NCBI GenBank assembly: GCA_009693115.1
Contig: SHXW01000022.1
Span: 1 to 38,468 of the forward strand
From: Dehalococcoidia bacterium
GTDB lineage: Bacteria > Chloroflexota > Dehalococcoidia > Lucifugimonadales > Lucifugimonadaceae
DNA length: 38,468 bases
Reading direction: 5' to 3'
Made by a program: the position numbers and the translations under genes. Shown in pieces: positions 15,901-16,298 of this stretch. A model generated the notes under the pieces. That model saw only the letters and a list, made by a program, of their open reading frames with translations. It was not told where the DNA came from and did no database searches. Each line of letters begins with the position of its first letter. The stretch's first letter is position 1.

Positions 15901-16298
15901 CGCGCCTTGCACTCCTCGACGAACTTCGCGATGCCGTAGGCCTCGATGTCCTTCTTGGACTTGAAGCCCAGGTCCTTCTCGACATTCACCTCCACCCACA
16001 GGCCCTGGCCGTCAAACCCGTTCTGGAACCGCTGGCGGTAGCCCTGCATGTTGCGCCAGCGCAGGAAGAGGTCCTTGTACATGCGGCCCCAGGCGTGGTG
16101 GACGCCCATGGGGTTGTTCGCCGTGATGGGGCCGTCAATGAATGACCACTTCCTGGGTGACCTGTCATTCCTGTGCAGGTACCTGTCCACAATGCCCGCC
16201 TCGTACCACCACTTGAGCGTGCGTTCCTCGTTGGCGACGAAGTCCACCCTCGGCGCAACCGGCTCGAACGCCCCCTGCCTGTTCGGTGTCGTGGTCAT
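12948..16298 (-). CDS. ileS: Isoleucyl-tRNA synthetase, altered class I signature
   Basis: This enzyme charges tRNA-Ile with isoleucine. The 1116-residue protein has the class I catalytic domain, a large editing insertion with WTTTPWTLPANVAAAVNPE (about residue 260), a tRNA-binding helical domain and a C-terminal domain. Cys pairs CPRCG, CWRCN, CEECG and CPKCG suggest zinc sites. The HIGH motif is replaced by PMGVHHAWGR (G65, H67, H68), and the KMSKS motif by MHKSKGN near residue 660. ATG 16298 was chosen because GGGGTGAT lies five bases upstream; a TTG two codons earlier is possible. Expression is governed by the T-box leader upstream. A short REP-like palindrome is read in frame in the loop TPSHDGRGDAS. 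Confidence 0.95.
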   Translation of the reverse strand: MTTTPNRQGAFEPVAPRVDFVANEERTLKWWYEAGIVDRYLHRNDRSPRKWSFIDGPITANNPMGVHHAWGRMYKDLFLRWRNMQGYRQRFQNGFDGQGLWVEVNVEKDLGFKSKKDIEAYGIAKFVEECKARVRHYAAVQTEQSKRLGYFMDWEPSSHTDEQERRGDISGGSYHTMSDENNYTIWHFLKACHERGWLYEGTDVMPWCPRCGTGLSQHEIVTEGYQELTHTSVYVKLPVLSKHNGETTEAGESLVVWTTTPWTLPANVAAAVNPEHTYVKVKNGDDTLWLGAQRAKAVLKGEYEVIEQRRGSEMVGWRYRGPFDGLPGASEAKDAHRVIEWDDVGEEEGTGIVHIAPGAGAEDFKLGKENALPVIAPLDESGVYVTGPAFGQFAGKAVPQVNEAVLDALRQTGAFYKTEKIKHRYPVCWRCNTELVFRLVSEWFINMDGKGFIGPDGKWLSATEAAKAAPGTAKATTYREQMIEVTQKIRWVPSFGLDRELDWLRNMHDWMISKKRYWGLALPIWKCEECGNVDVMGSETELKGRAVEGWAEFDGHSPHRPWVDAVKVACPKCGAKASRIKDVGNPWLDAGIVPFSTLGYRHDRRHWNEWYPADWISESFPGQFRNWFYSLLAMSTALENHEPFKACFTYALMRDEKGEEMHKSKGNAIWFEDGAKKMGVDVMRWQFSRHTPAQNINFGYAPGDEVRRQFLIPLWNVYSFFVTYANLDGWTPSHDGRGDASAPAWSELDRWLLSELNRVTSVVTRHLEEWRPEAAAHELEEFVDRLSNWYVRRSRRRFWKSESDADKAAAYAALYQCLTTLTRLLAPFIPFVTEEMYQNLVAGRVAGAPDSVHLTDWPTSDASLIDEELAARTGLAIKLASLGRSARASSKLKVRQPLAELAVELREAKEYAYLPVIEPQLLDELNVKRVRGVAKGASAGGGLLSYNIKPNLPKLGPKYGKQMAEIRALLSKADPAAVAGAAERGQTIKLGEFELAPDEVLIEKVAPAGYAVASDGGYAAAVMTEITPELKAEGTAREVVHLVQNLRKTAGLEISDRITLYIGSSGAVRAALEALDTYVREETLAVSVSHLAPAADMAAESHDIEGENVTIGLRKA
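14085..14105. repeat. REP-like palindrome inside ileS coding sequence
   Basis: CCCTCTC (14085-14091) and GAGAGGG (14099-14105) form an inverted repeat with the same core as the intergenic repeats. It is translated within a variable loop of the synthetase without breaking the frame. Confidence 0.7.

What the first reader, a model, noticed from the sequence alone, without database searches (positions are those of the whole stretch)
16074..16118. IleRS with swapped HIGH motif (GVHH) under T-box control
Seen: the class I signature reads PMGVHHAWGR, so first and third positions of HxGH are exchanged to GxHH, and the KMSKS region reads MHKSKGN. Known: an altered HIGH motif of the GxHH kind has been described in some mupirocin-resistant type 2 isoleucyl-tRNA synthetases and linked to very high resistance. 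Inference: this enzyme may be strongly mupirocin-resistant, and as the only ileS visible it may be the housekeeping enzyme.
Basis: partly seen in the sequence, partly recalled or inferred. Interest (0 to 1): 0.72.

Follow-up and report, generated by a model that had tools for sequence, protein, structure and literature searches.

The report
Isoleucyl-tRNA synthetase with remodelled signature motifs
The window holds the only isoleucine tRNA-charging enzyme found in this Chloroflexota genome; it belongs to an old bacterial lineage in which both catalytic signature motifs of the enzyme, not only the one noticed, have been rewritten, which predicts but does not prove very strong natural resistance to the antibiotic mupirocin.

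Summary
A 1116-aa ileS on the minus strand (12951-16298) reads PMGVHHAWGR instead of HxGH. It lies behind a T-box leader with an AUC (isoleucine) specifier and a terminator, and no second ileS was found in the 95.6%-complete genome. By sequence, domain, fold and tree it is a type 2 IleRS. The swapped GxHH motif and its link to mM mupirocin Ki were published in 2023, and T-box control of ileS in Chloroflexi in 2008, so those parts are known. The finding understated one thing: the odd KMSKS region (E-M-H-K-S) is not noise. About 130 related sequences, mostly Chloroflexota, form one clade in which GxHH always goes with loss of the first KMSKS lysine and a Ser-to-His change, plus GWDTHGLP to GFDxQGLW and about a dozen further changes at otherwise invariant sites. 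Other Chloroflexota GxHH enzymes keep KMSKS. In both motifs the basic residue at position 1 is lost and a His stands at position 3. I found no description of this second remodelling in the literature searched. Hyper-resistance is a strong but untested prediction; the trait is inherited by the lineage, not an acquired resistance gene.

The parts
12951..16298 (-). ileS, type 2 isoleucyl-tRNA synthetase, 1116 aa, sole copy in the assembly
   Evidence: ORF; TIGR00392 688 bits over cut-off 621; Pfam tRNA-synt_1, Anticodon_1 and DUF5915 C-terminal domain; best PDB match P. megaterium IleRS2 by sequence and fold; single copy
16095..16106 (-). GVHH (aa 65-68), altered HIGH motif
   Evidence: direct reading; aligned to HVGH of T. 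thermophilus IleRS2 and HMGH of S. aureus IleRS1
14307..14321 (-). EMHKS (aa 660-664), altered KMSKS motif: first Lys lost, Ser to His, second Lys kept
15993..16019 (-). GFDGQGLWV (aa 94-102) in place of the otherwise invariant GWD(T/C)HGLP(V/A/I)
16470..16837 (-). T-box leader (Stem I to antiterminator)
   Evidence: RF00230 79.7 bits, E 1.4e-17; same element upstream of ileS in relatives
16746..16748 (-). Specifier codon AUC (isoleucine)
   Evidence: position from the RF00230 alignment; AUC kept in 10 of 10 aligned relatives while the neighbouring base varies
16496..16509 (-). T-box sequence AGGGUGGUACCACG (5' side of the antiterminator)
   Evidence: sequence; RF00230 alignment
16454..16483 (-). 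Intrinsic terminator GGCCCGUCCCUGACCAGGGGCGGGUUUUUU, which shares GUCCCU with the antiterminator
   Evidence: -19.6 kcal/mol, z -3.6

Best explanation
This is the housekeeping isoleucyl-tRNA synthetase of a Chloroflexota bacterium, a type 2 IleRS of a distinct clade in which both ATP-handling signature motifs were rewritten. Shown by sequence: HxGH is GxHH, KMSKS is xMHKS, and about 15 further sites are changed, while the residues that hold isoleucine and its adenylate (T. thermophilus numbering P46, D85, W518, E550, Q554, W558; their roles from my own knowledge of the IleRS structures) and usually the second KMSKS lysine are kept. Expression is set by a T-box whose specifier is an isoleucine codon, so it should respond to tRNA-Ile charging. 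Inferred: the third His of GxHH does the job of the first His, as shown by others in an engineered P. megaterium enzyme, and the new His in the KMSKS loop stands in for the lost first lysine, so that in both motifs the basic residue moved from position 1 to position 3. Inferred: His67 clashes with mupirocin, making the enzyme hyper-resistant (mM Ki) as an inherited property.
For: IleRS2 identity: best PDB match P. megaterium IleRS2, 9.5e-190, IleRS1 far weaker; IleRS2-type C-terminal domain; AlphaFold model best matched to 8c8v; clade inside IleRS2 with IleRS1 and ValRS outside, SH-aLRT 99-100. Isoleucine specificity: AUC specifier in the leader here and in 10 of 10 relatives, sole ileS, kept pocket residues. 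Clade-wide double change: about 130 of 130 with xMHKS and GxHH, 0 of 63 others with xMHKS. Resistance mechanism: motif swaps in three IleRS2 enzymes changed Ki about 175- to 820-fold, natural ALHH enzyme Ki 6.6 mM (PMC10485003).
Against: No member of this clade has been assayed to my knowledge; other changes in the pocket (Tt numbering H87Q, W84F, P90W, Asp553 lost) could move mupirocin binding in either direction. The first KMSKS lysine might be replaced by a residue other than His662, or simply be dispensable. The AlphaFold model is weak just at the motifs (pLDDT about 50-60), so it says nothing about geometry.
Confidence: 0.8

Rival explanations
1. An ordinary GxHH IleRS2 as already described: the KMSKS and other changes are neutral drift of a divergent lineage with no mechanistic meaning.
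For: GxHH enzymes are common (86 of 163 IleRS2 in PMC10485003), and some class I enzymes of other specificities lack the first KMSKS lysine (own knowledge, e.g. GlnRS).
Against: The changes are fixed in about 130 sequences over many families, and never occur in 63 other IleRS in the same comparison, including GxHH enzymes of the same phylum. Drift would not hold His at one position in all.
Confidence: 0.25
2. The clade was driven by an inhibitor other than mupirocin, which acts on the ATP/KMSKS side; mupirocin hyper-resistance is a by-product.
For: Far more of the adenylate site is rewritten than GxHH alone needs, since other GxHH enzymes do without.
Against: No inhibitor or producer is known here; nothing seen near ileS points to one.
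Confidence: 0.2
3. A dedicated, acquired resistance ileS next to a normal one (as with plasmid-borne MupA).
For: Some Chloroflexota carry two ileS, one of each GxHH type (G163, G194, G260, G267).
Against: Only one ileS here; MupA/MupB models score far below their cut-offs (578 and 571 of 1900 bits); T-box control and presence across the family point to housekeeping.
Confidence: 0.03

Closest known systems
G/AxHH type 2 IleRS of Brkic et al. 2023 (Streptomyces griseus, Deinococcus radiodurans; PMC10485003)
   Same: Type 2 IleRS; first and third positions of HxGH exchanged; housekeeping enzyme
   Different: Here KMSKS is xMHKS, GWDTHGLP is GFDxQGLW, WFDSG is WLDAG, and the Asp553 site is changed; the Chloroflexota GxHH enzymes outside this clade keep all of these
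Priestia megaterium IleRS2 (PDB 8c8v; GVHH mutant 8c8w)
   Same: Closest solved structure by sequence and fold; the engineered mutant has the same GVHH
   Different: Natural motif is HVGH with KMSKS; 33-34% identity in the structural alignment
T-box leaders of ileS in Chloroflexi (Dehalococcoides; PMC2494555) and Firmicutes
   Same: T-box related to an isoleucine tRNA ligase gene
   Different: Longer here (368 nt match against 219 model positions) owing to loop insertions; scores below Rfam's cut-off
MupA / MupB (mupirocin-resistant ileS2 of staphylococci)
   Same: Type 2 IleRS
   Different: Sole copy in the assembly, far below the family cut-offs

Membership tests
Isoleucyl-tRNA synthetase | Full-length match to the IleRS family above its cut-off | tested here: met
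   TIGR00392 688 bits against 621
Isoleucyl-tRNA synthetase | Charges tRNA-Ile with isoleucine | not testable with these tools
   Indirect: AUC specifier, sole ileS, kept pocket residues
Type 2 IleRS (IleRS2) | Groups with IleRS2, apart from IleRS1 | tested here: met
   IleRS1 outside with 100 support
Type 2 IleRS (IleRS2) | Type 2 C-terminal domain, no C-terminal zinc-binding domain of IleRS1 | tested here: met
   PF19302 DUF5915 at 922-1115, no IleRS1-type zinc domain hit
G/AxHH hyper-resistant IleRS2 | G/A-x-H-H in place of HxGH | tested here: met
   GVHH, residues 65-68
G/AxHH hyper-resistant IleRS2 | mM Ki for mupirocin | not testable with these tools
   Needs purified enzyme
G/AxHH hyper-resistant IleRS2 | Canonical KMSKS, as in the other Chloroflexota GxHH enzymes examined (not a stated defining feature, so membership stands, as a variant) | tested here: not met
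   EMHKS; all about 130 relatives xMHKS
T-box riboswitch | Stem I with specifier loop, T-box sequence, antiterminator/terminator | tested here: met
   RF00230 E 1.4e-17 though below the curated cut-off; terminator; positional conservation in relatives
MupA/MupB acquired resistance IleRS | Match above the family cut-off | tested here: not met
   578 and 571 bits against 1900

The most novel reading that the evidence does not exclude
A whole old clade of IleRS has moved the basic residue of both class I signature motifs from position 1 to position 3 (HxGH to GxHH and KMSKS to xMHKS) together with the rest of the adenylate site, so that isoleucine activation runs on a differently built ATP site that is insensitive to known IleRS inhibitors.
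Probability: 0.4. Interest if true: 0.72.

Novelty: new variant of a known kind. Interest (0 to 1): 0.5.

Why it matters
HIGH and KMSKS are among the most conserved catalytic motifs known. One exchange (GxHH) was a surprise in 2023; here is a natural lineage with both changed at once in the sole ileS. It gives a ready test of which residues of the two motifs are truly needed, and of how intrinsic mupirocin resistance is built. Genomes that carry both GxHH types (xMHKS and KMSKS) are natural side-by-side experiments.

Tried and rejected
Rfam at the gathering score found no T-box; with an E-value threshold it is clear, so the miss is a cut-off effect. Chance or error in the motifs: rejected by conservation. 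An acquired MupA-type gene: rejected. A genome-wide oddity of class I enzymes: rejected, since ValRS and TrpRS of the same genome keep HxGH and KMSKS. A large repeat inserted in the leader: the 121-base stretch occurs once in the genome. AlphaFold was run to check the fold; confidence at the motifs is too low to discuss geometry. Laying the whole genome in the Python box was not possible. One translation was made in a wrong frame and ignored.

Full report
Observation. The minus-strand ORF 12951-16298 encodes 1116 residues. Residues 63-72 read PMGVHHAWGR; GVHH (16095-16106) aligns with HVGH of Thermus thermophilus IleRS2 and HMGH of Staphylococcus aureus IleRS1. The KMSKS region is GEEMHKSKGN (14298-14327).

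Identity. TIGR00392 (ileS) is met at 688 bits against 621. Pfam shows the class I core, the anticodon-binding domain and DUF5915 at the C-terminus, and no IleRS1-type zinc domain. The best PDB sequences are the P. megaterium IleRS2 entries (E down to 9.5e-190), then T. thermophilus IleRS2, with IleRS1 at 1e-70 or weaker. An AlphaFold model (mean pLDDT 80, weak around both motifs) matches 8c8v best. In two trees IleRS1 falls outside with full support and the window enzyme lies in IleRS2. The editing-domain landmarks WTTTPWTLP and GTGIVHIAPG are present.

Sole copy. In the assembly (2.02 Mb, 40 contigs, 95.6% complete) the only other hits are class I relatives with the motifs and sizes of ValRS, LeuRS and MetRS. 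So this is very probably the housekeeping enzyme; about 4-5% of the genome is unseen.

Leader. RF00230 matches 16470-16837(-) at 79.7 bits, E 1.4e-17, below the curated score, which explains the blank first scan. The specifier loop reads GUGAAAAUCAC; the codon AUC (16746-16748) is isoleucine. In ten relatives' leaders aligned to the same model AUC is kept while the base before it varies. AGGGUGGUACCACG (16496-16509) is followed by a terminator of -19.6 kcal/mol that shares GUCCCU with the antiterminator. Of 20 stretches taken directly upstream of ileS in the window's family, 12 were hit by the T-box model at E 0.001 or better; those not hit may have diverged leaders or none. T-boxes also stand by ileS in other Chloroflexota, for both GxHH types. 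A T-box of an isoleucine tRNA ligase gene in Dehalococcoides was reported in 2008 (PMC2494555). The assembly has two further T-boxes, before genes that read as trpS and ilvB (gene names from reading the proteins, not from a search).

Relatives were collected from named genomes (80 loci), the window's family and the phylum. Of 196 distinct proteins (a few genes counted twice through different locus cuts), 133 carry His at the third KMSKS position. All of these lack the first lysine (E, P, A, D or Q instead), all with a readable motif have G/A-x-H-H, and nearly all read GF/YDxQGLW. The other 63 all have Lys at KMSKS position 1, Ser at position 3, and GWD(T/C)HGLP, whether their first motif is GxHH or HxGH. 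The xMHKS group is one clade (SH-aLRT 99) and falls as sister to all other IleRS2 sampled; this root position rests on quick trees and should be taken as provisional. Nineteen sites are fixed differently inside and outside the clade, several of them invariant even in IleRS1. Kept are Tt P46, D85, W518, E550, Q554, W558 and, in most, the second KMSKS lysine (Arg in about five).

Spread. Clade members come mainly from Anaerolineae, Thermoflexia and SAR202-like Chloroflexota, with others labelled Poribacteria, Entotheonella, Armatimonadota, Neomarinimicrobiota, Bacillota, Actinomycetota and Spirochaetota; some of these MAG labels may be wrong. In the window's class the clade is patchy: a clade profile gives 1353-1745 bits in 9 genomes and at most 915 in the rest, one further genome having a split gene that may belong. 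In the window's own family three small-genome genera instead carry a eukaryote-like IleRS with HYGH and KLSKK/R and no T-box near it in the loci tested; the simplest reading is that the clade enzyme was replaced there.

Mechanism. Published: exchanging the two motif positions in IleRS2 changes mupirocin Ki by about 175- to 820-fold, the natural ALHH enzyme of D. radiodurans has Ki 6.6 mM, the third His takes the place of the first, and modelled into the mupirocin complex it clashes with the drug (PMC10485003). Inference here: the window enzyme works in the same way. Further inference: in KMSKS the basic residue has likewise gone from position 1 to position 3, so that His662 may replace the lost lysine. 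The parallel is seen in sequence only.

Novelty. GxHH and ileS T-boxes are known. Searches for the second change found nothing, and the parts of the main text of PMC10485003 that I read do not discuss it, though its tree contained Chloroflexi and its figures and supplement were not available. Hence new variant of a known kind.

Noticed in passing
L147-L156 (genera g4, g5, g10 of the window's family): Small-genome members of the same family carry a eukaryote-like IleRS (HYGH, KLSKK/R, about 31-33% identical) instead of the xMHKS enzyme; no T-box was found near it in the six loci tested.
   Followed up: partly
L167/L168 (G260), L170/L171 (G163), L172/L173 (G194), also G267: Four large Chloroflexota genomes carry two ileS, one GxHH+KMSKS and one GxHH+xMHKS (for G267 the second copy is inferred from its score).
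   Followed up: partly
window 16360-16374 and 16681-16695 (-): TTCGACAGGTTCAGG occurs exactly twice in the whole assembly, both in this leader, on either side of the terminator; near copies elsewhere suggest a small dispersed repeat that may have lengthened the T-box loop.
   Followed up: partly
L247 138-208: In G008 a tRNA gene, not a T-box, was the only RNA family hit in the 450 bases taken around the start of ileS.
   Followed up: no
L181, L182, L188, L189, L193: In a few clade members even the second KMSKS lysine is Arg (MHRS).
   Followed up: no
L006, L009, L072: Clade members in MAGs labelled Spirochaetaceae, Rubrobacter and Bacillota; the first two sit right among Chloroflexota sequences in the tree: wrong labels, bin contamination or gene transfer.
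   Followed up: no
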